DNA from: an uncultured Bacteroidota bacterium
GTDB taxonomy: Bacteria; Bacteroidota; Bacteroidia; Bacteroidales; P3
Reading direction: 5' to 3'
DNA: 64,000 nucleotides
Assembly: GCA_902776365.1 (NCBI GenBank)
Contig: CACYPU010000005.1
Coordinates: 1 to 64,000 of the forward strand
The notes beneath the pieces are model-generated. The model did not search any database. It saw nothing but the letters and a program-made list of their open reading frames with translations, and was not told the origin of the DNA. The first letter of the stretch is position 1. Every line of letters begins with the position of its first letter. A program made the translations under genes and the position numbers. Below, one piece after another: positions 244 to 63,335 of this stretch.

Positions 244-2061
244 ATGAAAAATATACGCAACTTCTGCATTATTGCTCATATTGACCACGGTAAGAGTACC
301 TTGGCCGATCGTCTGCTGGAGGTGACGAATACCGTCAGCCAGCGCGAAATGCAGGATCAGGTGCTCGATGATATGGAGCTGGAGAAGGAACGCGGCATCA
401 CCATCAAGAGCCACGCTATCCAGATGAACTATAGAAGGAGTGCAAGGGAGTGCGAAGGAGTGCAGGGGAGTGCGGAGGAGTATGTGCTGAACCTTATCGA
501 CACCCCGGGTCATGTGGACTTTAGCTATGAGGTCTCTCGCGCCATCGCTGCCTGTGAGGGAGCGCTGCTGGTGGTCGACGCCACGCAGGGCATCCAGGCA
601 CAAACCATCTCGAATCTCTACCTTGCCCTTGAGAACGACCTTGAAATCATCCCCGTGATGAACAAGATAGACCTCGACAGCGCCATGCCTGAAGAGGTGG
701 CCGACGAGATTGTCGACCTGCTGGGTTGCAAGCCAGAGGAGATCCTCCGTTGCTCGGCCAAGACGGGCATGGGTGTGCCGGAGATTCTCGACGCCATCGT
801 CGACCGTATTCCTGCCCCCGAAGGCGACCCCGATGCACCGCTCCAGGCCCTCGTCTTCGACTCTGTTTTCAATCCTTTCCGAGGCATCATCAGCTATTTC
901 CGCATCATGAACGGCACGCTGAAGACCGGCGATCATGTGAAGTTCTTCTCCACAGGTCGCGAATATGACGCTGACGAGGTGGGTGTGCTGCGCTTGAACA
1001 TGGAACCTTGTAAGCAGCTCTCTGCCGGCAATGTGGGCTATATCATCTCCGGCATCAAGACCTCGAAGGAGGTGCGTGTGGGCGACACCATCACTCATGT
1101 CAATGTTCCTTGCGAGAAGCCTATCGAGGGTTTCGAGGCCGTGAAGCCTATGGTCTTCGCTGGCGTCTATCCTGTGGATACCGACGACTACGAGGAGTTG
1201 CGTGCCAGCATCGAGAAACTGCAGCTCAATGATGCCAGCCTCACCTTTGAACCTGAAAGTTCATTGGCTTTGGGCTTCGGTTTCCGCTGTGGATTCCTGG
1301 GCCTGCTGCACATGGAAATTGTGCAGGAACGCCTGACGCGCGAGTTCGATATGGATGTCATCACCACAGTGCCCAACGTGCAGTACAAGGTGAAGCTCAC
1401 CAACGGCAGCGAGATTGACGTCTACAACCCCTCGGGTATGCCCGAGCCGAACAATATCGCCGAGGTGTACGAGCCATACATTCACGCGCAGATTATCACC
1501 AAGGCCGACTTCATCGGTCCTGTGATAAAGCTTTGCATGGACAAGCGCGGCATCCTCAAAAACCAGAACTATCTCACCACCGACCGCATCGAGATAACCT
1601 TCGACCTGCCGCTGGGAGAGGTAGTCTTCGACTTCTATGACAAGCTCAAATCCATCTCGAAAGGCTACGCCTCTTTCGACTACTACATCAACGGCTACCA
1701 GCCCTCGAAGCTGGTGAAACTGGAGATACTCCTCAACGGCGACCCCGTTGATGCCCTCTCCACGCTCACCTACGTTGACAACGCCTATCCCATCGGAAGG
1801 AAGATGTGCGAAAAACTGAAAGACCTTATCCCGCGCCAGCAGTTCGACGTAGCCATTCAGGCCGCCATCGGCAGCAAGATTATCGCCCGCGAAACGGTGC
1901 GTCAGGTGCGCAAGGATGTGACGGCCAAGTGCTATGGTGGTGATATTACGCGTAAGCGTAAACTCCTTGAGAAACAGAAGGAGGGAAAGAAACGTATGCG
2001 TCAGGTCGGTAACGTCGAGGTGCCGCAGAGTGCCTTCCTCGCCGTACTGAAATTGGATTGA
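244..2061 (+). CDS. lepA: Elongation factor 4 (LepA), translational GTPase
   Basis: EF4 acts on stalled or mistranslocated ribosomes and in 30S assembly. The G domain shows G1 AHIDHGKS (residues 11-18), G2 RGITIKSH, G3 DTPGH and G4 NKID, and the LepA-specific C-terminus rich in Lys/Arg ([20 protein letters not shown]) is present. I chose the ATG at 244 because the family begins [12 protein letters not shown]. An in-frame ATG at 226 adds six residues and would be nearly leaderless. The protein is 605 residues, slightly longer than usual. The extra length lies in the loop just before DTPGH, where about a dozen residues (roughly 64-80) are encoded by a 10-bp tandem array (435-481). The gene appears monocistronic or co-transcribed with the small lipoprotein that follows 22 bases later. 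Confidence 0.97.
435..481. repeat. 10-bp tandem array (GGAGTGCA family) inside lepA
   Basis: Four full units and one partial of AAGGAGTGCA/AGGGAGTGCG/GGGGAGTGCG. The array is in frame and encodes a hydrophilic stretch ([16 protein letters not shown]) just before the G3 box, where other LepA proteins have a short hairpin. Units differ by A/G changes only. Confidence 0.9.
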
Positions 2062-2593: not shown

Positions 2594-3861
2594 AATGTGT
2601 GCTCATAACGGCGCACCTGCCACAGGTACCATATCAGCAGGGATGCTTTCACGAGCGTCCCTGCTGCTGCATACAGGACGATGGCTAGCATGAAGTCGTG
2701 GGTGCCGACGCCAATGGCGATGGCTGCCACTCGCAGCACCATCAGCACCAGATAGAATCCAAATTCGGTACGCTGGGTGGAGAAAACATTGGGGATGAAT
2801 GTCAGCGAACTGGAGAACAATGTGACGAGGGCCATCGGCAACAGCGCTTGGACAAAGGGTCCGCACCCCTGCCAGCGGTCGCCGAAGCAGAAGACAAACA
2901 CGGGCTCGGCGAAGAACCACGCCAGCACACCCACGGGCAGCGCCACAGCCAGCAGAGGCAGGAGGAAGCGTCGCAGCAGGCGCATGAAGGTTTTTCGGTC
3001 GCGCACGGCCTCTGCGGTGCGGGCGTAGAGCACCCGTTCAAAGGCAATGCTGAGGATGTTGACAGGTTGCATGGTGAATGTCAGTGCCAAGCCGAAGAGT
3101 CCTATCTCGGCACTTTTAAAATAGAGGGCGGCCCAGAGGAACGGCAGGTTCGAGGAAAAGGTGTTGATAAAGTCCTTCGTGGCCACGAAGAATGGGAAAT
3201 TGCGGTGCGTTCTGGCAACGGCCCGGAGTTCGGAATTTGGAATTTGGAATTTGGAATTCGGAAGACTCTTTAGCTTGAGGCGATAGTTGATGTTCGCCGC
3301 CGCCTGTCCCAGTACGGTGCCCAGAGGCAGGCCGCTAGGGGAGAGTCCCAGTAGCCCCAGCACGATTTTCGTGAGGGCGCCGCCGGCGGCATTCACTGTG
3401 TCGGACACAGCAATCATCGCGTAGCGGTGGAAGCGGTTGTAGAGGAAACTGTAGACGCGTGAGGTGCCGCAGAAGAAGACCATCGGGGGGATGAGCAGCA
3501 CCATCCATCCCAGCTGTGCCATGTTGCCTGGTAGCAGGCCTGTGAGCCATAGCACCAGTGCCACCGTGAGCAGAGCCACAGACACCAGCGTGTTCATCCG
3601 CAAGGCGAAGCGCGTCACCGCCGCCGCCTCACGCTCGTCGTCGGCCACGACGATGGCCAGCTCGTACTTGCAGGTGCTAAAGATGATGAACACCTCGATA
3701 TAGGAATAGAAGATGTTGAACAGGCCGTAATCCTCTGGAGGATAGATGCGTGTGAGCACGAAATAGGCCACCAGCGTGATGGCTTGTGCCAGCACGTTGC
3801 CGCTCACCAGCGTCGCCGCTTCGCGGATCAAACCTCCCCGTGGTATTTTCGGAGTACCCAT
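2590..3861 (-). CDS. Polysaccharide/lipid-linked oligosaccharide flippase (MATE/Wzx-like)
   Basis: A hydrophobic protein of about 423 residues with roughly 12 predicted membrane segments, opening with GGLIREAATLVSGNVLAQAI typical of Wzx-type polysaccharide exporters. Such proteins move undecaprenyl-linked glycans to the periplasm. The start at 3861 (ATG) overlaps the upstream VWA gene by 34 bases. A GTG at 3900 would add 13 residues that merely re-read that gene. A hydrophilic insertion (LPNSKFQIPNSEL) in a loop is encoded by the 7-bp array at 3225-3259. The O-antigen ligase-like gene in the same leftward run supports a role in surface glycan assembly. Confidence 0.88.
   Translation of the reverse strand: MGTPKIPRGGLIREAATLVSGNVLAQAITLVAYFVLTRIYPPEDYGLFNIFYSYIEVFIIFSTCKYELAIVVADDEREAAAVTRFALRMNTLVSVALLTVALVLWLTGLLPGNMAQLGWMVLLIPPMVFFCGTSRVYSFLYNRFHRYAMIAVSDTVNAAGGALTKIVLGLLGLSPSGLPLGTVLGQAAANINYRLKLKSLPNSKFQIPNSELRAVARTHRNFPFFVATKDFINTFSSNLPFLWAALYFKSAEIGLFGLALTFTMQPVNILSIAFERVLYARTAEAVRDRKTFMRLLRRFLLPLLAVALPVGVLAWFFAEPVFVFCFGDRWQGCGPFVQALLPMALVTLFSSSLTFIPNVFSTQRTEFGFYLVLMVLRVAAIAIGVGTHDFMLAIVLYAAAGTLVKASLLIWYLWQVRRYEHTF
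3225..3259. repeat. 7-bp tandem array (GGAATTC family) inside flippase gene
   Basis: Five units GGAGTTC/GGAATTT/GGAATTC, continuing weakly into GGAAGAC. It encodes a polar loop with repeated PNS motifs in an otherwise hydrophobic protein, so it looks like an insertion. Confidence 0.9.
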
Positions 3862-5834
3862 TCGAGACTTAATAGAAGGATTATCAGTATTAATACCCAC
3901 AGTAGATTCAGCATCTCGGAGAACCGCGTGTGAGTGTAGATGACAGGTTTGAGAGTTTGGAGTTCGGCGTTCAGAGAAGAGAGTTGGTCAGGATAGAACA
4001 TTTTGCCGCCGGTGATGCTGCTGATGGTTTTGAGCAGGGTGTGGTTAGCGGTGAGGTTGGCCTGCTCGAGGTGCAGCGCCTCCACAGCGAAGGCACCCTC
4101 GGCGGTGTAGGTGGTACCGTCGTAAGTCGTTGTGGCGGTATAGCGGTAGAGTCCTTCGGGTAGCGTCCCCAGCGAGAGGGTGTATCCGCTGCCTTGACGC
4201 GAGAAGTTGTAGTCACCCTGCACTCCCTTGTGATTCTCTACACTCCCCTGCACTCCTTGAAGTGTAAGCTTCGCCTCGGGGGTGTTGAAGGGCTCGTAGC
4301 TCTCATTGTAGAGCTGGGCGTGTACCATCACCTCGTCGTTGTCGGAATAGTGGCGCTCTGTCTCCACGATGAAGCGCTCGCGGTTGTCGGTGATGGCGGC
4401 GAAGTTGACCAACTGGCTCACGAGGCGGTCGAAGTGGTCGTGTGACTTGTTGTTCAGGAAATCCACCAGACGCCAGCGCCACAGTCCTTCGCCCCATACG
4501 AAGGCCCTGCGCTGTTGCCCCTGCACCAGGGCCGACACCAAAGGCTGTCCGGTGTTGATGCTGCCCAGGCGGGCGGTGAGGAGCGACTGGAGGTTTGGGG
4601 AGGTCTTCACCTCGCCGAAAGGCGCCGTCAGCGGCGGCAGCTCCTCGAGGGCGATGGCATCGGCGGCGTCGAGGGTGAAGAGCGAGAACGCGTTGTTGTA
4701 TAGCGCTGTTACCTCGTTTACCTTCTTCGTCCTCGCCACAATCTCAAGCCCCGTATGCAGGGCGTTGAAGCGAGCTAGGTCGGTTTGGGTGCCGATGATA
4801 TAGATTGCGTTATTGTTTGATTGTTTGATTGCTTGAGTGGTGGAGGGTAGGTTGTGAAAGATGAGAAGGGAGTAATCTTTCAATTCCTCGGTCTTCATTC
4901 TTAATTCCTCATTCATAAACACCTTTGCCTCGTAGTTGGGGTTGCTTTCCACTGCCTGTTTCAGTGCCGCGAGGTCGGGGTGGGGGGAATTGCCGATGAT
5001 GGCCACTTTGCGGCGGCTGTCGAGGACGTCGGTGTAGAACGTCAGCACGTTGTTTACTGTCTCCCGTTCGCCATCGACAACGGAGAGGCTGGCTGTATAT
5101 CGTTGCAAGCCAGGTTTCTCGGCCTTTAGTTCGAAGGTCAGGGTGGTGCTAAACAGGTCGTCGGAGTAATCCACCTGCTGCATCGCTAGCGCCTTGCCGT
5201 GGGCGTCGGTGAGGGTGAGTTGTGCCGAATGGTTTTTCAGGCGCCTGGCGTTGATTGTCAGTTCCACGGGGAAGGTGTTGCCTGTGAAGGCTATGCGGTT
5301 GTGGCGTATGGATGCCAGCGCGGCGTCGCGCTGCGGTGTGGTGTCGCCTAAGGCCACAGTGTAGACGGGAAAGGTGAGCCGTTCGGCGGTGCTGGCGGGG
5401 TTGTTTCCGCGGTTGTAGATGCCGTCGGTGGCCAGCACCACAGCCCCCAGGTTGCGCCCCTGATAGTGGTTGGCGATGTCGTCCAGCTCTGCCGAGATGT
5501 CGGTCGTGCTCCCGCCAAACTCCTCATATACCAACTCGCATTCGTCAATTTCGAATTTCGAATTAAGAATTGAGAATATCGAAGTGTCTATCGATTCGGA
5601 AATATCCTGCACCACTACCACCACGGGTTTCTGCTGTTCGTTGACGGTGCGTTTGGCCACGGGAGCCAGCAGCAGCAGGGCAATGGCGGAGACAGCCACG
5701 AAACGCACTGCCGCCAGCAGCAGGTTCATCCGCTTGCTGAAGCGTCGGCGTCCCACAAAATAGAGTCCCGCGGAGTAGGCCGCACCCGCCAGTAGGCAGA
5801 AGAGAACGTAGTACCAAGGATAGTCGATTATCAT
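3828..5834 (-). CDS. VWA-domain membrane protein
   Basis: 668 residues: two N-terminal membrane segments (about 8-27 and 37-60), a von Willebrand A-like domain beginning at VVVVVQDISES (MIDAS-like DxSxS, about residues 72-81) with ATDGIYNRG downstream, a long periplasmic beta-rich region, and a final membrane helix near 645-663. This architecture is common in Bacteroidetes, where such proteins resemble BatA/BatB relatives, but the function is unknown. Four separate tandem arrays (4217, 4804, 4882, 5547) give polar low-complexity inserts, which is exceptional. The start ATG at 5834 abuts another array (5835-5858). Confidence 0.85.
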   Translation of the reverse strand: MIIDYPWYYVLFCLLAGAAYSAGLYFVGRRRFSKRMNLLLAAVRFVAVSAIALLLLAPVAKRTVNEQQKPVVVVVQDISESIDTSIFSILNSKFEIDECELVYEEFGGSTTDISAELDDIANHYQGRNLGAVVLATDGIYNRGNNPASTAERLTFPVYTVALGDTTPQRDAALASIRHNRIAFTGNTFPVELTINARRLKNHSAQLTLTDAHGKALAMQQVDYSDDLFSTTLTFELKAEKPGLQRYTASLSVVDGERETVNNVLTFYTDVLDSRRKVAIIGNSPHPDLAALKQAVESNPNYEAKVFMNEELRMKTEELKDYSLLIFHNLPSTTQAIKQSNNNAIYIIGTQTDLARFNALHTGLEIVARTKKVNEVTALYNNAFSLFTLDAADAIALEELPPLTAPFGEVKTSPNLQSLLTARLGSINTGQPLVSALVQGQQRRAFVWGEGLWRWRLVDFLNNKSHDHFDRLVSQLVNFAAITDNRERFIVETERHYSDNDEVMVHAQLYNESYEPFNTPEAKLTLQGVQGSVENHKGVQGDYNFSRQGSGYTLSLGTLPEGLYRYTATTTYDGTTYTAEGAFAVEALHLEQANLTANHTLLKTISSITGGKMFYPDQLSSLNAELQTLKPVIYTHTRFSEMLNLLWVLILIILLLSLEWVLRKYHGEV
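4217..4256. repeat. 10-bp array (GGAGTGCA family) inside VWA gene
   Basis: Four 10-bp units on the + strand, CCTGCACTCC (first and last), with diverged CTTGTGATTC and TCTACACTCC between. It encodes LQGVQGSVENHKGVQG, a duplicated GVQG motif. It is the reverse complement of the family seen in lepA. Confidence 0.8.
4804..4835. repeat. 8-bp array (ATTGTTTG family) inside VWA gene
   Basis: Four units: ATTGCGTT, ATTGTTTG twice, ATTGCTTG. It encodes a Gln/Asn-rich stretch (QAIKQSNNNAIY) in the periplasmic region. Confidence 0.85.
4882..4916. repeat. 7-bp array (AATTCCT/CATTCTT) inside VWA gene
   Basis: Five diverged 7-bp units, AATTCCT appearing twice with CGGTCTT, CATTCTT and CATTCAT. It encodes the charged stretch NEELRMKTEELKD. 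More decayed than the other arrays. Confidence 0.7.
5547..5581. repeat. 7-bp array (AATTTCG family) inside VWA gene
   Basis: Units AATTTCG twice, then AATTAAG, AATTGAG, AATATCG. It encodes SIFSILNSKFEID shortly after the MIDAS-like motif of the VWA domain. Confidence 0.85.
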
Positions 5835-5858
5835 AATGCGTTAATGTGTTAATGCGTC
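5835..5858. repeat. 8-bp array (AATGCGTT family) filling an intergenic gap
   Basis: AATGCGTT, AATGTGTT, AATGCGTC. It occupies the whole space between the VWA start codon (5834) and the M16 protease end. The last unit supplies the TGA stop of the protease gene (5857-5859). Confidence 0.85.
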
Positions 5859-7110: not shown

Positions 7111-8715
7111 TTATATTGTGTCCCGTTTGTCCATATCAGAGAAAGTTCGGACAGACGGCTGGAAGAAGGCCAGGAACCAAGAGCAGAAGAGGATGCCGGG
7201 GAGGGAGTCGAGGGTGTTCTCGGTGAGGAAGGAGACGAGGATAGTGACGAGCCACAATGTTTTAATGAGGGAGTATGAGGGAGTGCAAAGGAGTGCAAGG
7301 GAGTGCGAGGATAAATGTTTGTTGGATTGCATGATTGCCTGATTGCGAGTGTGGTGCCAGGCGCGGAGGAAGAAGAAGACTATCAGGGCGAAGCCGAGGA
7401 AGCCGAAAAGGGCGATGAGGGTGAGGTATTCGTTGTGGGGATAGAGCGGATTTTCCTGCATGGGGGAATCGGAGGCGACGAATTCGTCGTGTAAGGCTTT
7501 GTGAAGGTCGCCGGTGCCGGTACCGATGAGGGGGTGCTTCGCGATGACGTTCCAGGTGCAGCGCCAGAGCTCGAGGCGCTGGAGCATGGAGAATCCCGTT
7601 ACCGCGCGGTAGCAACGGTAGTTCTCATATTCGAAGAGGGCCTTATGAAGCATTTTTCGGAACGGCGAGCCGTGTTCATAGACGGGGTTGGCGACGCCGC
7701 GGGCAATCTCGTCGACTTGGCTGTCGGTGAGGGCGGCTACGCCGGCGCTGTCCTTAGTGAGGCCGAGGGCGTTGAGGTAGCGGATGAGGGCCGACTCGAC
7801 GGAGTAGCCGGAGGCGGTGAGGCTGTCGAGGGGCATGGTGCTACGTTTGGGCCATTCGTTGATGAGTTCGGCGCGACAGATGTAGTTGTTGACGTAGTTG
7901 CCATTCTCAATGAATCCGTCCTGCCGGTGCTCGTAGGGATGTCCATTCACGGTTTTTTCCTGCAAGGTCTCGCTGGACAAGGGACCGAGCCGGTAGTAGG
8001 AGCGGTAGCCGAGGAAAATCATGAGGCCAACGAGGCCGGCGGACACCACCCAGCAAGCTGTCCAAAGCCACCGACGGCGGTGCAGGATGGCGACGAGGGA
8101 GGCGACGGCGAGGATGACGACGGCGGTATAGGACTGGAGCAGGAGGAGGAAGAAGAGGAACCAGAGGATGAGGATCCAGTGAAGGACTTTGAATTTTATG
8201 TTTCGGGTTCTAAGTGATTGGTAGCCGAGTAGGTAGATGACCATGCAAATGTTGAGAGCGAAGCGTGTGTGGTGGATATAGGTGACGATTTCGCGGTGCG
8301 GCAGGTCGGGGATGGTGAGCCAGCGGACGAAGCCTATAATGGTGACGACGAAGACAGTGCCACCGTATAGGTTGAGGATGAGACTTCTCGTGTTGCCTTC
8401 GGGTGCTGGGGTGGTGAGGACGACCAGTGACACGGCCAACAACGGCAGCATCTCCACGATGTCGGAGCATCCTTTGGCGATGTCGGAGGTCCAGAGGAGT
8501 CCGACGACATGCAAGAAGAAGAGGACGGCGAAAGCGTGCAGGAGGCGGTTTCCACGAGCCATACGCCACTTCTCGGCCCAGCGGCCTTCGAAGACCCAGT
8601 TGACCAGCAGGAGCACCCAAACGACGTTGGAGAGGCCCACAGTGGTGACCATGCATCCGCCCAAGAGGGTGAGCAGTACTAGATATATTGTTCTATGAAC
8701 CTTGGCTCCGAACAA
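7111..8715 (-). CDS. O-antigen ligase/polymerase-like membrane protein (Wzy_C)
   Basis: 534 residues with about 10-12 membrane helices and a large periplasmic loop (roughly 225-360), ending with KHPLIGTGTGDLHKA and PHNEYLTLIALFGFLGF, the usual Wzy_C-domain signature of WaaL/Wzy-type proteins. These attach or polymerise lipid-linked O-chains in the periplasm. A cytoplasmic linker before the last helix (NQAIMQSNKHLSSHSLALLCTPSYSLIK) is encoded by two adjacent arrays (7267-7306 and 7316-7347), unlike the compact loop expected. It lies between the M16 protease and S41 protease genes on the same strand, four bases from the latter. Confidence 0.88.
   Translation of the reverse strand: MFGAKVHRTIYLVLLTLLGGCMVTTVGLSNVVWVLLLVNWVFEGRWAEKWRMARGNRLLHAFAVLFFLHVVGLLWTSDIAKGCSDIVEMLPLLAVSLVVLTTPAPEGNTRSLILNLYGGTVFVVTIIGFVRWLTIPDLPHREIVTYIHHTRFALNICMVIYLLGYQSLRTRNIKFKVLHWILILWFLFFLLLLQSYTAVVILAVASLVAILHRRRWLWTACWVVSAGLVGLMIFLGYRSYYRLGPLSSETLQEKTVNGHPYEHRQDGFIENGNYVNNYICRAELINEWPKRSTMPLDSLTASGYSVESALIRYLNALGLTKDSAGVAALTDSQVDEIARGVANPVYEHGSPFRKMLHKALFEYENYRCYRAVTGFSMLQRLELWRCTWNVIAKHPLIGTGTGDLHKALHDEFVASDSPMQENPLYPHNEYLTLIALFGFLGFALIVFFFLRAWHHTRNQAIMQSNKHLSSHSLALLCTPSYSLIKTLWLVTILVSFLTENTLDSLPGILFCSWFLAFFQPSVRTFSDMDKRDTI
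7267..7306. repeat. 10-bp array (GGAGTGCA family) inside O-antigen ligase gene
   Basis: Four units GAGGGAGTAT, GAGGGAGTGC, AAAGGAGTGC, AAGGGAGTGC. Same family as the lepA array 7 kb away, differing by transitions. Confidence 0.9.
7316..7347. repeat. 8-bp array (TGATTGCC family) inside O-antigen ligase gene
   Basis: TGTTTGTT, GGATTGCA, TGATTGCC, TGATTGCG. Related to the ATTGTTTG array in the VWA gene. It lies next to the 10-bp array, so two families are stacked in one loop. Confidence 0.75.
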
Positions 8716-26485: not shown

Positions 26486-26491
26486 AACTGC

Positions 26492-41357: not shown

Positions 41358-41360
41358 ATT

Positions 41361-44225: not shown

Positions 44226-44258
44226 ATTGTCGAGTCCTCCTTTTCTTTTTGTTTTAAG

Positions 44259-45589: not shown

Positions 45590-45627
45590 TGTTAATATTG
45601 TTTGTTTTTTTTGTTTCTTGTTTAAAA

Positions 45628-47223: not shown

Positions 47224-47231
47224 TAATTTGA

Positions 47232-47319
47232 GGTTGAAAAGGTTTTAAAGGTTAGAAAGGTTTAAGAGGTCCTCGTCCCCGATACCTTTTTAACCTTTAA
47301 AACTTTTTTAACCCTTTAA
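47232..47319. repeat. 9-bp composite inverted array after ptb
   Basis: Left arm: GGTTGAAAA, GGTTTTAAA, GGTTAGAAA, GGTTTAAGA (47232-47267). Right arm: ACCTTTTTA, ACCTTTAAA, ACTTTTTTA, ACCCTTTAA (47284-47319). Four units each way around a 16-base centre. It can fold into a long stem and occupies the whole ptb-PAS gap. Confidence 0.93.
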
Positions 47320-47328
47320 ACAACTATT

Positions 47329-51188: not shown

Positions 51189-51216
51189 GAGTTAAGAGTT
51201 AAGAATTAAGAGTTAT
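51189..51216. repeat. 7-bp array (GAGTTAA) ending in the anti-sigma start codon
   Basis: GAGTTAA twice, GAATTAA, GAGTTAT. The last AT plus the following G form the ATG start codon of the next gene (51215). Confidence 0.93.
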
Positions 51217-53765: not shown

Positions 53766-54487
53766 AGAATAAATGAGATTTCCTTCATGCCGCAACAGAG
53801 ATGACGGCCGTCGGAGGTGGTCAGCAGCAAGCGACCATGAGGGTCTATGCCTGTGATGGTGGCGGTGAGTTCCTCTTCATTATATAAATAGCGCGCGGGA
53901 ATGTTGAGGTTCAGCAGGTGCGACAGATACTCCGGTTCAGGGTCGAGACCGGACTTTAGGTCGTTGTATCGCTTCTCGATGCAGGTAAGAAGTTTTTTCA
54001 AGAGAGGCTCCAACTCGAATTCCATGCCTGTGAGCAGGGAGAGTGAGGTGGGGTTGGGGACCCAATTGTGGAAGATTGTTTGGTTGACATTGAGACCGAT
54101 GCCGCAGACGGCAGAGGAAAGATGAGAGGTGGTATAATGAGCAGAAACAAGGGTGCCACAGATTTTGTTGGTGGCAATATAGATGTCATTGGGCCACTTG
54201 ATGGAAGGTGAAAGGAGAAAGGTGAGAGGTGAAAGGAAATCGACGAGGGCCAAGGAGAGGGCTTCTGTAAGTTTGAACTGGCGTTCGGCGGGGAGGAATG
54301 TGGGATGGAGCACGAGGCTGAAGGTGAGGTTCTTTCCAGGCGCCGACTCCCAGTGATTGCCACGTTGCCCGATGCCGGCGGTCTGCTCCAGTGCCCAATA
54401 GCAAGTGAAGTCCTCTACCTCAGCGAGGTCGAGGGCTTCACAATACTTGTTTGTCGACTCTAGCGAATTGAATTTTTCAATTTTCAA
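53762..54487 (-). CDS. birA: Biotin-[acetyl-CoA-carboxylase] ligase
   Basis: 241 residues, catalytic and C-terminal domains only (no DNA-binding domain): QTAGIGQRGNHWESAPGKNLTFSLVLHP (biotin-binding GRGRxG-like), KWPNDIY, and GIGLNVNQT. The GxGxxG motif reads GIGQRG. It attaches biotin to carboxylase carriers. There is no ATG at the N-terminus: the frame starts with TTG at 54487 inside a TTTTCAA array. A 7-bp array (54207-54234) encodes LSPLTFLLSP directly before KWPND, a site that is compact in other BirA proteins. Confidence 0.92.
   Translation of the reverse strand: MKIEKFNSLESTNKYCEALDLAEVEDFTCYWALEQTAGIGQRGNHWESAPGKNLTFSLVLHPTFLPAERQFKLTEALSLALVDFLSPLTFLLSPSIKWPNDIYIATNKICGTLVSAHYTTSHLSSAVCGIGLNVNQTIFHNWVPNPTSLSLLTGMEFELEPLLKKLLTCIEKRYNDLKSGLDPEPEYLSHLLNLNIPARYLYNEEELTATITGIDPHGRLLLTTSDGRHLCCGMKEISFIL
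54207..54234. repeat. 7-bp array (GGTGAAA family) inside birA
   Basis: GGTGAAA, GGAGAAA, GGTGAGA, GGTGAAA: four units. It encodes a hydrophobic LSPLTFLLSP just before the catalytic KWPND. Confidence 0.92.
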
Positions 54488-54501
54488 TTTTCAATTTTCA
54501 A
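54474..54501. repeat. 7-bp array (TTTTCAA) spanning the birA start, ending at the frr stop
   Basis: Four perfect TTTTCAA units. The inverse TTGAAAA supplies the birA TTG start codon, and the frr stop codon begins at the next base. Confidence 0.93.
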
Positions 54502-55065
54502 TTAAATCGACATGATTTCTTTCTCCTTGGCGGCGTAAATTTTGTCGCACTCGGCGATGTTCTTGTCGGTGATGTCCTGGAGTTCTTTCTCTACCTGCTT
54601 CACCTCGTCTTCGGGTACCGATTTGTCCTTGAGTTTCTTGACTTCGTCCATCACCTTGCGACGCACGTTGCGGACGTTGACCTTGGCGTTTTCGATTTCG
54701 GTCTTGGCGGCCTTGCAGAGTTCTTTGCGGCGTTCCTCGGTCAGCGGTGGGATGATGATGCGCAGGATGTCGCCTTCATGGCGCGGCGTAAAGCCGAGGT
54801 TGGCATCGAGGATGGCCTTGTTGATGGCGCCCACGAGGGTCTTCTCCCAGGGCTGGATGACGATGCTGCGGGCATCGGGGGTGTTGATGTTGGCCACCTG
54901 GCTGATTTCGGTCATGGTGCCGTAGTAGTCCACCTTCACGCCGTCGAGCATGCCGGGGTTGGCTTTGCCGGCGCGGATTTTGGTGAGTTCCTTTTCGAGG
55001 AAGCTAAGGGAACTCTTCATGCTGGTTTTCGCCTCTTCGAGGCAGGCTTTCGATAGGTCGTTCAT
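54502..55065 (-). CDS. frr: Ribosome recycling factor
   Basis: 187 residues in the normal range: MKSSLSFLEKELTKIRAGKANPGMLDGVKVDYYGTMTEISQVANINTPDARSIVIQPWEK and IIIPPLTEERRKELCK are the RRF signatures of the three-helix domain and the hinge. With EF-G it splits post-termination ribosomes. It is preceded by pyrH (13 bases), the usual pyrH-frr pair. Confidence 0.97.
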   Translation of the reverse strand: MNDLSKACLEEAKTSMKSSLSFLEKELTKIRAGKANPGMLDGVKVDYYGTMTEISQVANINTPDARSIVIQPWEKTLVGAINKAILDANLGFTPRHEGDILRIIIPPLTEERRKELCKAAKTEIENAKVNVRNVRRKVMDEVKKLKDKSVPEDEVKQVEKELQDITDKNIAECDKIYAAKEKEIMSI

Positions 55066-56614: not shown

Positions 56615-57835
56615 TTACCCAAAAAAGAGGCAGCTGTCGCCGTAGCTGAGGAAACGGAAGCCGTGGTCGAGGGCGAAGCGGTAGCAATCATGCCAGCGGT
56701 CGCCGATGAGGGCGGAGACCAGCAGCAGCAGGGTGCTCTTGGGCTGGTGGAAGTTGGTGACGAGGCCATCGATGACGCGATATTGGTAGCCGGGGGCTAT
56801 CATCAGCTGCGTCTCGCCGTCGAGGTGGTCGCTATCGTGACGCTCCATCCAAGTGAGGATATTCTCAAATGCTTGAATAGTGGGCAGCGAATAGTGGGCA
56901 GTGGATAGCGTGTAGGGGTCCCACTGGTTGACGTGCATGTGGTCGAGGTCGGGGTTCTGCTGCAGCTGGACACCGAACCAGTAGAGGCTCTCGAGGGTGC
57001 GCACCGAGGTGGTGCCGACGGCTATCAGCGGCTTGCCCTGGTGGGCGATGATATGGCGCAGGTTGTCGGCGGTGACGTGGACGGGCTCCACATGCATCTC
57101 GTGCTCCCCGATGGTGTCGGTGCTCACGGGCTTGAAGGTGCCGGCGCCGACATGCAGGGTGATGTATTCGGTGAGGATACCTTTCTCTTTCAGGTGGGCA
57201 AACACCTCGGGGGTGAAGTGCAGACCGGCGGTTGGGGCGGCCACGGAGCCGTCGTGGTGGGCATAGACGGTCTGGTAGCGGGTGGCGTCGGAGACTTCGG
57301 CCTGGCGGTTGAGGTAGGGGGGCAGGGGGATGACGCCGGCGGCCTCGATGACCTCGGCGAAGGAGAATCCTCCCGTCCAGCTAAAATCCACCACCCAGGC
57401 ATTACCCACCGCTTCGCGCCGCGTGGCTGTGAGCGTGAACTGACCACTAGCCACTGACCACTGACCACTTAAGCTCCCCTCTTTCCACTTCTTGTTGTTG
57501 CCAATGAAGCAGGTCCAGGTGCAACGTTCTCGCTGCTCGAAGGCCTGTGCCACAGGCATCTGGTGAGGTTCGAGGCAGAAGACCTCTATCACCGCGCCGG
57601 TCTCTTTGCGGAAGAAGAGGCGGGCATGGATGACCTTGGTGTCGTTGAAAACCAAAAGGGTGTCTTTCGGCAGCAGGTCAGGGAGGTCGTAGAAATGGTG
57701 CTCGGAGATGTTGTCGCCCTTGAGGCATAGCAGCTTGGAATGGTCGCGCTGCTCCATGGGGAACTTGGCGATGCGCTCCTCAGGCAGGGGGTAGTCGTAG
57801 TCGGCGATGGGGATGTTTTTCAGCTCACTCAGCAT
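56615..57835 (-). CDS. queA: tRNA preQ1(34) S-adenosylmethionine ribosyltransferase-isomerase QueA
   Basis: 406 residues: PIADYDYPLPEERIAKFPMEQRDHSKLL at the start, FNDTKVIHARL, PLPPYLNR, APTAGLHFTPEV, TLHVGAGTFKPV and TNFHQPKSTLLLLVSALIG at the end, all typical of QueA, which makes epoxyqueuosine in tRNA. The ATG at 57835 is chosen; it overlaps pssA by 11 bases. Two arrays add SLSGQWSVASGQF (57441-57468) and STAHYSLPT (56881-56915) to loops. At 406 residues it is longer than the usual 340-350, partly because of these inserts. Confidence 0.95.
   Translation of the reverse strand: MLSELKNIPIADYDYPLPEERIAKFPMEQRDHSKLLCLKGDNISEHHFYDLPDLLPKDTLLVFNDTKVIHARLFFRKETGAVIEVFCLEPHQMPVAQAFEQRERCTWTCFIGNNKKWKEGSLSGQWSVASGQFTLTATRREAVGNAWVVDFSWTGGFSFAEVIEAAGVIPLPPYLNRQAEVSDATRYQTVYAHHDGSVAAPTAGLHFTPEVFAHLKEKGILTEYITLHVGAGTFKPVSTDTIGEHEMHVEPVHVTADNLRHIIAHQGKPLIAVGTTSVRTLESLYWFGVQLQQNPDLDHMHVNQWDPYTLSTAHYSLPTIQAFENILTWMERHDSDHLDGETQLMIAPGYQYRVIDGLVTNFHQPKSTLLLLVSALIGDRWHDCYRFALDHGFRFLSYGDSCLFFG
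56881..56915. repeat. 7-bp array (TGGGCAG family) inside queA
   Basis: TGGGCAG, CGAATAG, TGGGCAG, TGGATAG, CGTGTAG, in frame. In rotated form GTGGGCA/GCGAATA/GTGGATA, it fits the G-Y-R-R-N-Y-A superfamily. Confidence 0.88.
57441..57468. repeat. 7-bp array (TGACCAC family) inside queA
   Basis: TGACCAC, TAGCCAC, TGACCAC, TGACCAC: the same unit as in the HprK-like gene at 21802-21829, 36 kb away. It encodes GQWSVASGQ; the other copy encodes GQWSVVS. Confidence 0.93.
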
Positions 57836-58553: not shown

Positions 58554-60392
58554 TTACCAGAGCTTGATGATGAGTTTGAACTCCTCGTCGTTCCAGTACT
58601 CTTTGAATTCGGTGTCGACGGCGGCTTTGCGCTTGTAGTCGTAGTTGTCGTCGATGGAGGCTTTCAGCGCCTTGAGGCACTCGTTGCGGTCGCCGCGACG
58701 GGCGTAGCAGACGGCGCGGAGGTACTTCACGTCGGCGTTTTGGTCGAGGCAGCAGTTGAGGGTCTGCAGGGCAGCGCCCACCTCGTCGTTCATCAGCTGG
58801 GTGAAGGCGAGGTTATAGGTGCAGTTGCTGTTCTTCAGGGCTTTCTTGGCTTCGGTGTAGTTACCTTGCTTGAGGTTGAGGATGGGAATGTTGGAAGCGG
58901 CGTCGGTGCTGCCCTGACGGATGGCCTCGTTGAAGTAGTGCTTGGCCAGCGCATAGTCTTTCTTGGCCAGGTAGAGCAGGCCGGTGTTGTTGAGCACATC
59001 GGGGTTGTGGGGGTTGAGGTCGCGGGCCACATTGAGGTAGCGCTCGGCCTCCTCGATGGAGTCGAGGTAGAAGGCCACGGCGCCGGCATTGTTCCAGGCA
59101 GCCCATTCCTGCGAGTGGTTCTCGGTGGCCCACTTGTAGTATTTCAGCTTGGTGTCGTAGTTGTAGTTGATATAGGCGGCATACATCAGCTCGTCGAATG
59201 AGAGCTTGGCGGGGGTCAGGGAGGCGAGCTTAGCCAGCTCGGGGTCGGTGCGGCGGGCCTCACTGTAGTAGAGGGCAATCTGTGCACGGCGCAGGTTGGG
59301 GAAAATCTCGTCTTTCAGCTCGTCGTAGGTCTCGGCCATGTTGCGAATCATCTGCTCGCGCTTCAGCACGTTCTGCTGGGTCTCCACGATGTTGATGATG
59401 GCGTGCTTGTCTTGAATGTCGCTACCCTCGACCATCACCACGAAATGCACCCAGTCTTCGCCGGCGGCGCGGGTGGTAATGATGAGTTTCTTGAGCTGCT
59501 GGTACTTGTAGTATTCCACATCCTGGGGTTTCACTTTGGCGCGTTTGGCCATGATGGTGAGCACCTCGTCGAGGATTTTGTTGAGTTGTGCGGTGGCGAC
59601 GTCAGCGCGGTTCTTTGAGACACCCACATTGGCGGTCTCCTCGCCTTCGGGCGAGGCCCAGCCGGTGATGGCAATCTGCTTGGGCAATCCTTGCTCGAGC
59701 ATGATGCGCTTGAGGTTGAGGAGGCTATTGTAGGAGTCAAACTTGCGGTTCATCTCGAAGTCCCAGTCGAGGTCCGAAGTGCCGTTGAGGAAGTAGATAT
59801 CGGCGGTCTCCACGGTGCCTTGGGTTTTGTTGTAGTTGATGGGGGCAATGGAGATATTGCCCTTGATGTCGACCCATGATGAGGTGTTGTTCACGCCATC
59901 GGAGAGGAGGATGGTGTTGAACTCCACGCCCTCGTTGGTGTGGATGATGTCCTCCATGAAGCGTGCATCCTCGTTGGTGCGGTCGGCCTTGTAGCCGATG
60001 GGTGTAAGGGTCAGGCGGCCGGTCTCCATGCCGGGTTTGAAGTCGAACATGTCAGTGTAGGTGAAGCGGCCACCCTTGTCCTGGTTGATGACAAGGCCGT
60101 CGCCTTCCACCTTCTCGCCTTTGAGGGTCATGGGCTCCAGGGGAATGACGCCACCGTCCCACGAGAAGACGGGCTGGAGGAACACCGCGCAGTTCTTGTT
60201 GAAGTATCCTTCGGGAATCTGACCCGTGAATTTCACCACGACTTTTTCATCCATGGTTTCCACCGGGCTGGGGTTGGCTTGGTAGCGCACTTTGTTGCTG
60301 CCGGATTTCATTTTCGACAGTCCATTGCATCCTGTAAACAGCACCGCAAACAGCACTGCGGAGAGTGTCATGACAGAAAGTGACTTTCTCAT
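58554..60392 (-). CDS. Lipoprotein with OmpA-like and TPR regions
   Basis: 612 residues: lipobox FTGC (Cys22), a beta-rich N-terminal domain (30-200), an OmpA-family-like peptidoglycan-binding stretch (ADIYFLNGTSDLDWDF, about 195, through IAITGWASPEGEETANVGVSKNRADVATAQL, about 250-280), and tetratricopeptide-like helices (about 420-600; AAWNNAGAVAFYLDSIEEAERYLNVARDLNPHNPDVLNNTGLLYLAKKDYALAKHYF). It is probably an outer-membrane structural protein; similar Bacteroidetes proteins are uncharacterised. A -7 box lies at 60478-60485. Confidence 0.85.
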   Translation of the reverse strand: MRKSLSVMTLSAVLFAVLFTGCNGLSKMKSGSNKVRYQANPSPVETMDEKVVVKFTGQIPEGYFNKNCAVFLQPVFSWDGGVIPLEPMTLKGEKVEGDGLVINQDKGGRFTYTDMFDFKPGMETGRLTLTPIGYKADRTNEDARFMEDIIHTNEGVEFNTILLSDGVNNTSSWVDIKGNISIAPINYNKTQGTVETADIYFLNGTSDLDWDFEMNRKFDSYNSLLNLKRIMLEQGLPKQIAITGWASPEGEETANVGVSKNRADVATAQLNKILDEVLTIMAKRAKVKPQDVEYYKYQQLKKLIITTRAAGEDWVHFVVMVEGSDIQDKHAIINIVETQQNVLKREQMIRNMAETYDELKDEIFPNLRRAQIALYYSEARRTDPELAKLASLTPAKLSFDELMYAAYINYNYDTKLKYYKWATENHSQEWAAWNNAGAVAFYLDSIEEAERYLNVARDLNPHNPDVLNNTGLLYLAKKDYALAKHYFNEAIRQGSTDAASNIPILNLKQGNYTEAKKALKNSNCTYNLAFTQLMNDEVGAALQTLNCCLDQNADVKYLRAVCYARRGDRNECLKALKASIDDNYDYKRKAAVDTEFKEYWNDEEFKLIIKLW

Positions 60393-60477
60393 TTTATATT
60401 TTATATTTTATTTATATACGTGTCAATCAATTGAATACGCCAATTTTAACGGAGTATTACAACTGCCTTTTAACTTG

Positions 60478-60519: not shown

Positions 60520-63335
60520 TTGGCACAAAAATTGCAATAGTTTTTTACCGGGCAGAAGGCGCAGGCCGTAGTCGACGGGGTGGCAGTGAAGGCGATGGCC
60601 GGATTCATCAGTTCCTCAGCTTTTTCACGCAGCAGGCTCTCGAAATTGTCCAGTTGCTCGCCTTTGATTTCCTCGCTGTCGTTCCAGGTGGCCAGCTTGA
60701 CGTCGGAACGCAGGTTGCGCAGAGGGTAGATGCCGACCCTGAGGGTGGGTAGTGGAGAGTGGGTAGCGGGTAGTTTTCGGGCATAGAGCAGGGCGTACCA
60801 CATGAGTTGCAGCCATTTGCCGGGCATCTGCTCGTCGCCGTCGTGATAGGTGATGTCCTTCTTCTCGAGCTTGCCGGTCTTATAGTCGATGATGCGCAGG
60901 CTTCCGTCGAGGGTGTCCACGCGGTCTATTTTGCCTTTGAGATTCACACCCTCCAGCAGGGGATAGTCGTGGATGGTTTCTTCCACAGCGTTGATAGTCA
61001 GCCGCTCGCCACCTTCGAGATGCGCTATCTCGTTCTTGAGGATATGGCTTAGCTGCGCTTCGGCCACCGAATAGAGGAACCGGTTGCGACCCTCGGTGTT
61101 GCGGCCACCCGAATAGAGTTCTTTGAAAGCTTGTTCCATATAGGTAGGCAACTGGTCGAGAGTCTCTTTCAGCACCTCGGCCTTTAAAGGCACGCCACAG
61201 TGGGGCTTCAGTATGTTTTCCAGCACCTTGTGCACACAGTCGCCCAGCTGCGAGGCGTCGAGGTCTTCGTCAATCTCTTTCTGCTCGTCGATGGCTAGCA
61301 CCCGCGAATAGTAGTATTTCAACGGGCATTCCATGTAGTCGACGAAGCCGGTGGGCGAGAGACCGCTCTGTCCCATCTCGCGGAGACGCTGCATCACGGC
61401 CTCGCTTTTCACGGCTTCCGACTGTGGACGTCCGGCGGTGAGGGTGGCGTCTGATTTGACGGCCACATGCGTGACCTTGATACCGAAGCGTGGGGCCAAC
61501 TCGCTCTCCACCTGGAGGATGAAGCGGCTCGCCTCGCCTTTCCCCATGCCGTCACTTTCCGAACTGTAGAGTAGGTACACCTTCTCGGCACGTTGCAGCA
61601 GCCGGTAGAAATGGTGCGAGTAAACACTGTCTTTCTCCACATAGGTGGGCAGGCCGAAATATACCTTCAGCTCGTTGGGGATGAGGGTGTTGTCGCCACG
61701 CCCCGAAGGCAGTACGCCCTCGTTGGCCGATAGCAGGATGACACGCTTGAAGTCCAGGTTGCGGGTCTCCAGCATGCCCAGTATCTGCAGCCCCTGCAGC
61801 GGCTCGCCGCGCAGCGAGATGGCGTGGCGCTGGGCAATGCGGGTGTAGATTTTTTCTAAGGTCTCGGTGCTGTCGACGAAGGGGTAGGTGTCCATGAGCA
61901 GCGTGAGGTTCTCCAGCACCTCCGCCAGGCTCCCCACGGCCTGTTTTTCCTTGGGGTTCTTCTCCAGCAGGTCGCTGCCCACGAGGTCGGCGGCCAGGTG
62001 CTTGAAGAGCTCGAGGCATTCGCCGGGCAGAGGCTTGTGGTCGGGGAAGAGATAGGACAGTTTTGTAGGCTCTTCCGCGCCAGCATTGCGCAGCAGCGTC
62101 TCGATGTCGGTGGCGGAGCAGCGGATGAGGTTGCCGTCGCGCATAAGCTGCTCGACGCTGTGGCGCAGGCTTCCCGCCTTCAGCAGGTTCCCGACGAAGC
62201 GGTCGGAGAAGAGTTCCGTGAGGGTGCTGTGGTAGTAGCCACGCGAGTCGTGCTGGTGGTAGAGGGCAAAGAGCCTCTCTATCAGCGCATGAACCATGCT
62301 GTTGCTATAGGCGTAGCCCATGGTGATGTTCACCGTGTAATCCACCTCGTCGGTGGTGTCGGGCAAGGCGTTGAGGGTGGGCACGAGCAGGCTCTCGTCG
62401 GCCAGCACGATGGCGGTGCTCTCGGCCTCCTTGGGGTCGAGCCACTCGGGGTGGGCCGACAACAGCTGTCCCGTGTATTTGCACTGCATGATGTTCTCCG
62501 GACAATCGACGATGAAAATTTCCTTCTCGTCGGCACCGATGCCGAAGCGCGAAGGCCCTGTGGGGCGAATCTCCGGGAAGTCGCCCATGTGCTTGTTCAG
62601 GAAGTAGCCGGCCTCCTGGTGTGGCTCGAGGAAATAGACGTCGTTGTCGCAAAGTAGGTGCCCCACACCGCGCCGCACATACTCGCCGATGATGGTTTCC
62701 TCACACTTCGACAGCGCGTTGAAGCCCACGAAATAGATAGCAGCACATTTGTCTTGCACTCCTTGCACTCCCTGCACTCCTATATGTTCCGCTACATACC
62801 GATACGCCATTCCGCTATAGGCTTTCCCTTGCGACAGCAGCCGCTCGCGGAGCCGCACGTAGTAGTCGTACAGCGAATGGTAGAATTCGAGGTATCTCCT
62901 TTGGAAATCCGTCTCGCCGCCACCCTCGATATCCCACTCGCCGATGGCCTTCAGCGAGTGCAGGTTGTCGAAGATTTGGCGGGCATCGACGAGGTACTGG
63001 TCAATCTCCGAGAAGTCGCGCAGCATCAGGTCGCCGAACGAGATGAAATCCTCGAAACTCTTGTACTTGCGCTCCTCACCGCCCAGCTGCACATGGATGT
63101 TGTAGAGCTCGAAGAGCAGGAATTCGTTGGGCACAATCTCGAGGCCGCTGAGTTGCGCGATGAAGTCGTCGATGGCCATCACCTGCGGCAGGAAACTGGC
63201 GCGCCCCAGGGTGGTGAACTGCTTGGCGAAGAAGCGCTTAGAACGGTTGTTGTTGAACACCACCAGCACCCGGTCGGTGTCCTTCGGGTGCTCGTCGACG
63301 ATACGCTGTGCTATCTGTTTCAGGAAAGTGTCCAT
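60516..63335 (-). CDS. AddB-like PD-(D/E)XK nuclease/helicase-fold protein
   Basis: 939 residues with the AddB/RexB layout: N-terminal inactivated helicase region (VLVVFNNNRSKRFF, HADDFI-like AIDDFIAQLSG), middle part with ILLSANEGVLPSGR and SESDGMGKGEASRFILQ, and a C-terminal nuclease (LEGVNLKGKIDRVDTLDGSLRIIDYKTGKLEK) flanked by Cys for a 4Fe-4S cluster (CPLKYYY and CAFCPVKNYC). With an AddA helicase-nuclease it would process DNA ends for recombination; addA is not in the window. Two arrays insert THSPLPTL (60745) and GVQGVQGVQ (62754). Confidence 0.9.
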   Translation of the reverse strand: MDTFLKQIAQRIVDEHPKDTDRVLVVFNNNRSKRFFAKQFTTLGRASFLPQVMAIDDFIAQLSGLEIVPNEFLLFELYNIHVQLGGEERKYKSFEDFISFGDLMLRDFSEIDQYLVDARQIFDNLHSLKAIGEWDIEGGGETDFQRRYLEFYHSLYDYYVRLRERLLSQGKAYSGMAYRYVAEHIGVQGVQGVQDKCAAIYFVGFNALSKCEETIIGEYVRRGVGHLLCDNDVYFLEPHQEAGYFLNKHMGDFPEIRPTGPSRFGIGADEKEIFIVDCPENIMQCKYTGQLLSAHPEWLDPKEAESTAIVLADESLLVPTLNALPDTTDEVDYTVNITMGYAYSNSMVHALIERLFALYHQHDSRGYYHSTLTELFSDRFVGNLLKAGSLRHSVEQLMRDGNLIRCSATDIETLLRNAGAEEPTKLSYLFPDHKPLPGECLELFKHLAADLVGSDLLEKNPKEKQAVGSLAEVLENLTLLMDTYPFVDSTETLEKIYTRIAQRHAISLRGEPLQGLQILGMLETRNLDFKRVILLSANEGVLPSGRGDNTLIPNELKVYFGLPTYVEKDSVYSHHFYRLLQRAEKVYLLYSSESDGMGKGEASRFILQVESELAPRFGIKVTHVAVKSDATLTAGRPQSEAVKSEAVMQRLREMGQSGLSPTGFVDYMECPLKYYYSRVLAIDEQKEIDEDLDASQLGDCVHKVLENILKPHCGVPLKAEVLKETLDQLPTYMEQAFKELYSGGRNTEGRNRFLYSVAEAQLSHILKNEIAHLEGGERLTINAVEETIHDYPLLEGVNLKGKIDRVDTLDGSLRIIDYKTGKLEKKDITYHDGDEQMPGKWLQLMWYALLYARKLPATHSPLPTLRVGIYPLRNLRSDVKLATWNDSEEIKGEQLDNFESLLREKAEELMNPAIAFTATPSTTACAFCPVKNYCNFCAK
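60745..60772. repeat. 7-bp array (GTGGGTA family) inside the addB-like gene
   Basis: GTGGGTA, GTGGAGA, GTGGGTA, GCGGGTA: four units. It encodes PATHSPLPTL on the minus strand, inside the nuclease domain between two strands. Confidence 0.9.
62754..62780. repeat. 9-bp array (TTGCACTCC; GGAGTGCAA family) inside the addB-like gene
   Basis: TTGCACTCC twice and CTGCACTCC. On the minus strand it encodes GVQGVQGVQ. A nine-base form of the 10-bp family in lepA and the O-antigen ligase gene. Confidence 0.9.

What the first reader, a model, noticed from the sequence alone, without database searches (positions are those of the whole stretch)
435..62780. Genome-wide system of short tandem arrays, usually of four units, inside and between genes
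Seen: about 45 arrays of 7, 8, 9, 10 or 11 bp units across the window. Counting by eye, the commonest copy number is four (for example 15529, 19403, 21038, 28041, 40627, 51189, 51555, 54207, 54474, 57441, 60745), independent of unit length and of whether the site is coding. Unrelated loci share unit families in both orientations. Inference: one founder plus three added units inserts a multiple of three bases for any unit length, so genes keep their frame. The constant number in intergenic DNA suggests it reflects the generating mechanism rather than selection for frame. I know of no described bacterial element with this behaviour.
Basis: partly seen in the sequence, partly recalled or inferred. 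Interest (0 to 1): 0.92.

Follow-up and report, generated by a model that had tools for sequence, protein, structure and literature searches.

The report
Genome-wide four-unit short tandem arrays
A rumen Bacteroidales genome carries short tandem arrays, mostly of about four 7- to 11-base units, scattered inside and between genes, and related species often carry different units at the same places; the general kind is already known from other bacteria, but here it is dense, changes fast and is not generally explained by G-quadruplexes.

Summary
The arrays are real. In 464 kb of this genome (window plus sample) I found 85 arrays of period 7-12, against 0, 0 and 1 in three shuffles. The commonest copy number is four; for heptamers this holds inside genes and between them. 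Beyond five copies numbers drop sharply here, though relatives have longer arrays.

The frame argument (founder plus three units) fails: at nine coding-array records outside one shared loop the commonest net length change against array-free orthologs was 0, 6, 15, 18, 21, 24 or 27 nt, never three of the record's own units. In QueA the loop length does not change.

Unit families are dispersed and species-specific. AAGGTGAx3 scores 31 here and 3 in G126, the closest genome found; its reversal scores 5 and 77. ACTCATCx3 scores 85 in one relative and occurs in 9 of 120 genomes. Of 12 sites with heptamers in both W and G126, 2 keep the unit.

Known kind: dispersed heptamers preferring four units in Xanthomonas and Nostoc (PMC4692102); TAACTGA repeats (PMC4679880). 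Four also predominates for units without GG/CC, so G-quadruplexes are not the general cause. New variant of a known kind.

The parts
435..481 (+). 10-mer array (GGAGTGC core, about 4.7 units) in lepA, at a length-variable loop; net +45 nt against G126
3225..3263 (-). GGAATTT 7-mer array, 4.6 copies, in a polysaccharide-biosynthesis (Polysacc_synt_3) gene
4812..4836 (-). ATTGTTTG 8-mer array, 3.1 copies, inside ORF 3828-5834
5834..5857 (.). TTAATGCG 8-mer array at the junction of two ORFs
7265..7306 (-). GGAGTGC-family array inside ORF 7111-8715, near its 3' end
10291..10331 (-). TCCGAATAA 9-mer array near the N-terminus of an S41 peptidase gene
15529..15556 (+). ATTTTTC x4, N-terminal part of gldH
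18549..18577 (+). 14-bp unit (7-mer doublet) array in rlmN
19402..19445 (.). AACAAAGAAGT 11-mer x4, intergenic, next to a shorter inverted run
21038..21068 (.). ACGCATTA/ACACATTC 8-mer x4 at the junction of two ORFs
21743..21775 (+). AAGGTGA-family 7-mer array, 4.7 copies
21802..21827 (+). CACTGAC 7-mer array, 3.7 copies
24606..24633 (-). AAGGTGA x4, perfect, inside a PGA_cap gene
26460..26486 (.). 7-mer doublet array at the junction of two ORFs
28042..28072 (-). ACGCAATA-type 8-mer x4 near the start of a C69 peptidase gene
30136..30171 (.). CACATTAA-type 8-mer array
40623..40671 (-). 11-mer x4 (TATCGTGAATG), beside tRNA-Arg; resembles TATCGTACAAG
40911..40964 (.). TATTGTGT 8-mer array, degenerate, about 7 copies
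41328..41360 (.). TAACGCAT 8-mer x4, just downstream of the IF-2 gene
44251..44297 (.). GGTTTAAAA 9-mer array, 4.7-5.2 copies
45620..45684 (.). GGTTTAAAA 9-mer array with inverted partner
47230..47321 (.). two 9-mer arrays in inverted orientation
47755..47778 (+). TTTTGAG 7-mer array near the N-terminus of ORF 47592-50279 (outer-membrane beta-barrel protein)
51189..51215 (+). GAGTTAA 7-mer x4 ending at the ATG of ORF 51215-51724; G126 has TAGTTAA-type units here
54205..54236 (-). TTTCACC 7-mer array in the LplA-like gene's loop; relatives carry other 7- or 9-mer units here
54474..54503 (-). TTGAAAA x4 at the RRF/LplA gene junction; other repeats here in several relatives
56875..56901 (-). CTGCCCACTATTCG array in queA; L045 carries TCAAGCAA-type 8-mers at the same place and length
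57439..57469 (-). TGGTCAG 7-mer array in queA; loop length unchanged in nine orthologs
60391..60411 (.). ATTTTAT x3, identical in G126
60744..60776 (-). TACCCAC-type 7-mer array in a PDDEXK_1 (AddB-like) gene; L045 has TTTCCAC and L034 TCTCACC here
62753..62781 (-). GGAGTGCAA 9-mer array in the same gene; L045/G126 has GGAGTTCAA

Best explanation
These are dispersed short tandem arrays of the STRR / long-simple-sequence-repeat kind. Shown here: large excess over chance; commonest copy number four at several unit lengths, and for heptamers both in and between genes; dispersed species-specific unit families; mostly different units at shared sites in a related species; zero or non-unit-multiple net length change in genes. 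Inferred mechanism: (1) polymerase slippage at a short native direct repeat starts a run; (2) units are then copied between arrays of the same period elsewhere in the genome by microhomology-primed template switching, which spreads a few families through each genome and can overwrite a stretch without changing its length; (3) purifying selection removes arrays that break frame, create stops or hit structured protein, so survivors lie in intergenic DNA, loops and N-terminal leader regions; (4) four units is the steady-state length of copying and loss, because new arrays copy donors that already have about four.
For: 85 arrays against 0/0/1 in shuffles and a drop after five copies. Genome-specific heptamer families: sharing probability 0.073 within W, 0.101 within G126, 0.032 between them, 0 of 2000 permutations as large. 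Counts of AAGGTGAx3, its reversal and ACTCATCx3 over 120 genomes. Shared sites: 17 of 61 have arrays in both W and G126; of 12 with heptamers in both, 2 keep the unit. Zero or non-unit-multiple net change. Native seed: the QueA ortholog L051 carries AGTGGCGAGTGG where W has AGTGGTC-type units. Units change stepwise along long arrays in G036. 51 of 55 and 113 of 121 heptamer units lack G on one strand, against 25% and 27% of random genomic heptamers, which would favour annealing over self-folding (inference). None of six 4-kb bins under 45% GC holds an array, against 150 arrays in the other 110 bins.
Against: No copying event was seen: G126, the closest genome found, is only about 81-89% identical in syntenic stretches, so slippage plus later deletion under length selection could give the same end state. 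Heptamers at shared sites are more alike than random W x G126 pairs (1.75 vs 2.43 differences, about 1% of resamples), which suits gradual drift in place. In the LplA loop the unit is the most abundant of three tested families in its genome in only 5 of 8 genomes, one a tie; the other 7 of the 15 genomes searched have other units. One site has arrays in opposite orientation in W and G126 (L018:913), which in-register copying does not explain. No machinery was found.
Confidence: 0.45

Rival explanations
1. Purely local slippage with a mutational bias: each array grows at its own site from a chance microrepeat; shared families reflect a species-specific bias in which heptamers slip best; nothing moves between loci.
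For: A seed visible in one ortholog; unit drift along long arrays; units at shared sites closer than random; three-letter bias. A slippage explanation for heptamers is credited to Mrazek et al. 2007 in PMC4679880 (passage).
Against: W and G126 differ 31:3 and 5:77 in exact triplets of two very similar heptamer types, and ACTCATCx3 scores 85 in one genome and occurs in 9 of 120; a bias would have to switch between related species for single heptamers. Commonest net changes are not three units.
Confidence: 0.3
2. Binding sites: arrays are kept because a protein (for example an S1-, Csp- or CsrA-like RNA binder) recognises about four tandem units, mainly near starts and stops.
For: Of 55 non-coding arrays, 18 lie within 25 nt upstream of a start and 25 within 25 nt downstream of a stop, slight overlaps included (no random-position control was run). 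MacGregor 2015 suggests translational regulation for TAACTGA repeats (abstract). The 11-mer class has a fixed 4+4 inverted layout.
Against: 30 of 85 arrays in W lie inside called genes, some in housekeeping-gene loops with no conserved unit across species; many unit lengths coexist.
Confidence: 0.12
3. Mobile elements moved by a transposase (REP/RAYT-like or cyanobacterial small dispersed repeats), with arrays as their bodies or arms.
For: The 11-mer arrays are arms of an inverted element: 16 distinct copies read, 14 of 89 bp and 2 of 78 bp. Some families have preferred ends, for example AAAGGTG in W starts at one phase in 6 of 11 and AAAGGTT in G126 ends in two phases in 10 of 10 (no formal test).
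Against: Heptamer arrays mostly stand alone (inverted partner in 9 of 55 in W and 16 of 119 in G126). Y1 transposase: 13 of 18 genomes match, G000 once and weakly (31.6 bits), G064 and G140 not at all although they hold many arrays (assemblies are incomplete). Target duplications were not looked for.
Confidence: 0.1
4. Reverse-transcriptase or telomerase-like addition of units from an RNA template.
For: Species-specific unit families and some preferred array ends; G000 itself has one RVT_1 match.
Against: RVT_1 has no match in 14 of 28 genomes, including those of array-rich L037 and L057; assemblies are incomplete, so this is not absolute.
Confidence: 0.02
5. Assembly artefact.
For: The named relatives are uncultured or metagenome assemblies; two long arrays in G036 reach contig ends. 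In G000 two of 23 contig ends checked (13 of 36 were not) hold a short array within the last 200 bases.
Against: None of those 23 ends terminates in an array. Arrays of about 30 nt are shorter than usual reads (general knowledge). Orthologous genes with arrays stay open in independent assemblies.
Confidence: 0.01

Closest known systems
GGGAATC / GGGGA(C/T)T heptamer repeats of Xanthomonas and Nostoc (Rehm et al. 2015, PMC4692102; abstract, passages and section 10 seen)
   Same: Heptamers dispersed genome-wide on both strands, most often four units, 70-75 inverted pairs per Xanthomonas genome, prominent ones not at the same genes in two species.
   Different: One G-rich family studied, 89-93% intergenic in Xanthomonas, four related to G-quadruplexes. 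Here many families of 7-11 nt, about a third inside genes, and four also for units without GG or CC.
TAACTGA direct repeats of Beggiatoaceae, Cyanobacteria and five Bacteroidetes (MacGregor 2015, PMC4679880; abstract, outline and passages seen)
   Different: One sequence, mostly just upstream of start codons; related heptamers rarely repeated there. Here many related heptamers; TAACTGA is not among the 55 heptamer arrays of the sample.
Long simple sequence repeats (Mrazek et al. 2007, as described in PMC4679880) and cyanobacterial STRR (name recalled; a Calothrix heptanucleotide report is mentioned in PMC4692102)
   Same: Repeat units of up to 11 nt with heptamers most abundant.
   Different: According to PMC4679880, units of a multiple of three are the likeliest inside genes; here 23 of 30 coding arrays in W and 44 of 68 in G126 are heptamers.
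REPINs (PMC3116915, search listing only)
   Same: The 11-mer class is a dispersed inverted element.
   Different: Arms are four tandem units; no clear Y1 transposase link.

Membership tests
Dispersed heptamer tandem repeats / LSSR | Tandem arrays longer than chance, heptamers most frequent | tested here: met
   55 of 85 arrays are heptamers; shuffles 0, 0, 1
Dispersed heptamer tandem repeats / LSSR | Same unit at many unrelated loci, both strands | tested here: met
   AAGGTGAx3 forward 15, reverse 16 in G000
Rehm-type G-quadruplex heptamers | Preference for four units | tested here: met
Rehm-type G-quadruplex heptamers | Units with G-tracts (GGG) able to form a quadruplex | tested here: not met
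   Only 4 of 55 heptamer arrays in W have GGG/CCC; 32 of 55 have no GG/CC and still peak at 4 (20 of 32)
TAACTGA repeats | Unit sequence TAACTGA | tested here: not met
   not among the 55 heptamer arrays listed
TAACTGA repeats | Mostly just upstream of start codons | tested here: not met
   18 of 55 non-coding arrays lie within 25 nt upstream of a start, and 30 of 85 arrays are inside called genes
Phase-variation (contingency) repeats | Copy number varies within a species and switches genes | not testable with these tools
   the genome collections hold one genome per species
REP/RAYT (REPIN) elements | Dispersed palindromic element | tested here: met
   11-mer class only: 16 distinct copies with inverted arms
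REP/RAYT (REPIN) elements | Cognate Y1 transposase in the genome | tested here: inconclusive
   one Y1_Tnp match of 31.6 bits in G000; none in G064, G140

The most novel reading that the evidence does not exclude
The arrays are self-spreading sequences of about 30 nt: a unit family copies itself into other arrays and microrepeats by templated overwriting without necessarily changing length, so a genome's favoured unit can sweep many sites, housekeeping-gene loops included, between related species. Four units would then be the inherited size of the copied tract.
Probability: 0.22. Interest if true: 0.85.

Novelty: new variant of a known kind. Interest (0 to 1): 0.6.

Why it matters
A preference for four heptamer units has been published with a G-quadruplex explanation. 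Here the same preference appears in a distant phylum for units with no G-tracts, and four is also the commonest number for units of 8 to 11 bases, so the cause must be more general. A genus with 120 held genomes and unit turnover that can be traced site by site makes the old question of how dispersed short repeats arise, and why they stop near four, testable. It also shows that conserved proteins (LepA, QueA, an LplA-like ligase) tolerate repeated rewriting of loops by DNA-level processes.

Tried and rejected
Founder-plus-three insertion as a frame-keeping rule: rejected by net length changes. G-quadruplex need for four: rejected as the general cause. Reverse transcriptase as a requirement: weakened. 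Y1 transposase as a requirement: inconclusive. Assembly artefact: unlikely. Phage spread: only 7 and 15 viral stretches hold exact triplets of two families; the fetched stretches were not read. Link between the loop unit in LplA and the genome's favourite family: 5 of 8 with one tie, weak. Literature: the two searches aimed at Bacteroidales arrays gave 1 unrelated paper and none; the library is open-access papers only, so absence there proves little. Searches gave nothing new that was used.

Full report
WHAT WAS CHECKED. The window lies in a 2.23 Mb, 18-contig assembly (G000) of an uncultured Bacteroidales. Its RRF protein is up to 97% identical to rumen-derived assemblies (RUG, RGIG), and 120 genomes of its genus are held. 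Tandem Repeats Finder lists 49 rows in the window, 40 distinct places. A stricter detector on the window plus 20 stretches of 20 kb chosen by position only (464,000 bases) finds 85 arrays, none at periods 5, 6 or 13-20; shuffles give 0, 0 and 1. With mismatches allowed, period-7 runs number 61, 38, 43, 4 and 1 at 2, 3, 4, 5 and 7 copies, while codon-shuffled controls average 19 two-copy runs and nothing longer. Of the 61 doublets, 28 belong to longer strict or degenerate arrays. Counting perfect runs only, numbers fall from 113 to 13 to 11, so the mode at four rests on counting imperfect arrays. In G126 (836 kb, 170 arrays) four is also the commonest heptamer number, but arrays up to 28 copies occur; G036 reaches 23.

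CODING VERSUS INTERGENIC. A home-made codon-usage gene caller puts 30 of 85 arrays inside genes, 12 across gene edges and 43 between genes in W; 68, 29 and 73 of 170 in G126. Period-7 arrays with 4.0-4.99 copies: 19 of 23 coding and 12 of 22 intergenic in W; 31 of 44 and 27 of 53 in G126. Eleven-mers were only found outside genes (10 of 10 and 8 of 8), and 8- to 10-mers are few, so the comparison rests on heptamers.

NET LENGTH. In the neighbourhood of RRF (42 loci plus the window) 24 coding arrays were found, 18 of which had array-free orthologs to compare. Nine of the 18 are the same LplA loop, where the commonest net change is 0. The other nine records (seven distinct sites) have commonest changes of +24 (7 of 11 orthologs), +15 (5 of 6), +6 (12 of 13), +18 (9 of 10), +15 (5 of 7), +6 (12 of 13), +27 (29 of 31), 0 (12 of 12) and +21 (11 of 11); none equals three of the record's own units. 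Codon alignment forces multiples of three. In QueA the array of W lies in a loop whose length is identical in all nine orthologs aligned, some of which carry weak repeats of their own. In LepA the window array adds 45 nt compared with G126, and G002 and G036 carry other repeats at that point; among the 29 relatives aligned, others have longer loops without repeats, so the site tolerates length change.

UNIT FAMILIES. Among W heptamers the commonest are AAAGGTG 11, AAAATTG 8 and AAGAATT 5 of 55; in G126 AAAGTGG is 34 of 121. Sharing within genomes exceeded sharing between them in all 2000 permutations. Exact triplets over 120 genomes: AAGGTGAx3 in 17 genomes (G000 31, G126 3, G002 17, G036 65, G064 25); its reversed control is 5 in G000 and 77 in G126. 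ACTCATCx3 in 9 genomes, 85 of the hits in G002, none in G000 or G126. These are match positions, so long arrays count more than once.

SHARED SITES. Of 155 relaxed arrays in W, 37 had a findable orthologous site in the G126 stretches; both directions merged give 61 sites, 17 with arrays in both genomes. Of 12 with heptamers in both, 2 have the same unit and 5 have zero net change. Zero net change is commoner when both have arrays than when one has (Fisher p = 0.022), but selection on protein length confounds this. Units at shared sites are closer than random pairs (1.75 vs 2.43; about 1% of resamples), so part of the turnover looks like drift in place. One site has opposite orientations (L018:913). 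In the LplA loop, of 15 genomes searched, 8 carry one of three tested units there, and in 5 of these 8 (one a tie) that unit is the most abundant of the three genome-wide: weak.

COMPOSITION AND PLACEMENT. Heptamer arrays whose unit lacks G on one strand: 51 of 55 (W) and 113 of 121 (G126), against 25% and 27% of random genomic heptamers. This is not so for 11-mers (2 of 10, 1 of 8). Inside genes the sense strand lacks G in 18 of 23 and C in 3 of 23 heptamer arrays of W, and 28 and 15 of 44 in G126; removal of stop-containing orientations such as TGA could explain this. Heptamer units without GG or CC still peak at four (20 of 32 in W, 30 of 56 in G126), which excludes quadruplexes as the general reason. 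Six 4-kb bins below 45% GC hold no array, against 150 relaxed arrays in the other 110 bins; one explanation is recent arrival of that DNA.

THE 11-MER CLASS. Sixteen distinct copies read in full consist of four TTGTACGATAC-like units, a short centre and four inverted units: 14 are 89 bp and 2 are 78 bp, with an outer unit sometimes degenerate or missing. A pattern search gives 82 matches at up to two mismatches at 22 places. Some other species have their own 11-mer with inverted arms (for example L036, L038, L048, L063). Inverted partners are frequent for 11-mers (7 of 10 in W, 5 of 8 in G126) and rarer for heptamers (9 of 55, 16 of 119); shuffled flanks gave one partner in all. The 11-mers may be a separate kind of element.

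MECHANISM. Shown: excess, mode, family dispersal, unit change at shared sites, length behaviour. Inferred: slippage, inter-array templating, steady-state length. Candidate machinery was not found: RVT_1 is missing in 14 of 28 genomes including array-rich ones, though G000 has one match, and the Y1 transposase is missing in two genomes with many arrays. I put about 0.45 on slippage plus inter-array copying and 0.3 on local slippage with a shifting bias.

PRIOR ART. Rehm et al. 2015 (PMC4692102; abstract and passages, and section 10) describe heptamer families in Xanthomonas and Nostoc, with most sets in Xanthomonas of four units and 70-75 inverted pairs per genome. MacGregor 2015 (PMC4679880; abstract and outline, passages) describes TAACTGA sets and summarises Mrazek 2007, where heptamers were the most abundant long repeats. 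The phenomenon is therefore of a known kind. The many coexisting units, the share inside genes, the genus-wide turnover and the independence from G-tracts are what I did not see in the passages read.

Noticed in passing
window 30383-39468: Genes for a DUF2357/PDDEXK_7 protein, a YhcG-type nuclease, two C5 cytosine methylases and restriction-like proteins, with GC 0.45 and 0.39 in 32001-40000; no array between 30172 and 40622.
   Followed up: partly
L278-L297 and 22 places of G000: Dispersed 89-bp inverted element of 4+4 eleven-base units, with analogous but different 11-mers in some sister species.
   Followed up: partly
window 54474-54503 and L029-L070: RRF/LplA gene junction: several species carry their own runs of spaced palindromic hexamers (CTATAG, CCTAGG, ACTAGT) or heptamers between the same two genes.
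   Followed up: no
L146, L147, L151 (G036): Long arrays, in L147 with a unit that changes stepwise along the array; arrays in L146 and L151 reach contig ends.
   Followed up: no
window 15529, 47755; L214:6822: Arrays lie in N-terminal, apparently signal-peptide, regions and seem to encode their hydrophobic part; W and G126 use different repeats in one such gene. Read by eye.
   Followed up: no
L103, L087: Two distant Bacteroidales assemblies also carry arrays: L103 has 11 in 16.5 kb (7 8-mers, 4 7-mers, 3.6-5.7 copies), L087 has 4 in 12.4 kb (3.0-6.2 copies).
   Followed up: no
window 43351-43924: Repeats of period 12, 15, 18 and 24 in the IF-2 gene; probably ordinary coding repeats.
   Followed up: no
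L010:4184-4276, L014:1432, L020:12611, L015:17052: Several GGAGTGC- or GGAGTGA-type arrays are followed by a (G)GACAA(A)TG-like sequence and some have an inverted partner nearby.
   Followed up: no
G000 contigs C6, C10, C13 (L173, L174, L180): The last bases of C10 and the first of C13 and C6 share sequence next to an 8-mer CATTCACA-type array, so a repeated gene region with an array may break the assembly there.
   Followed up: no
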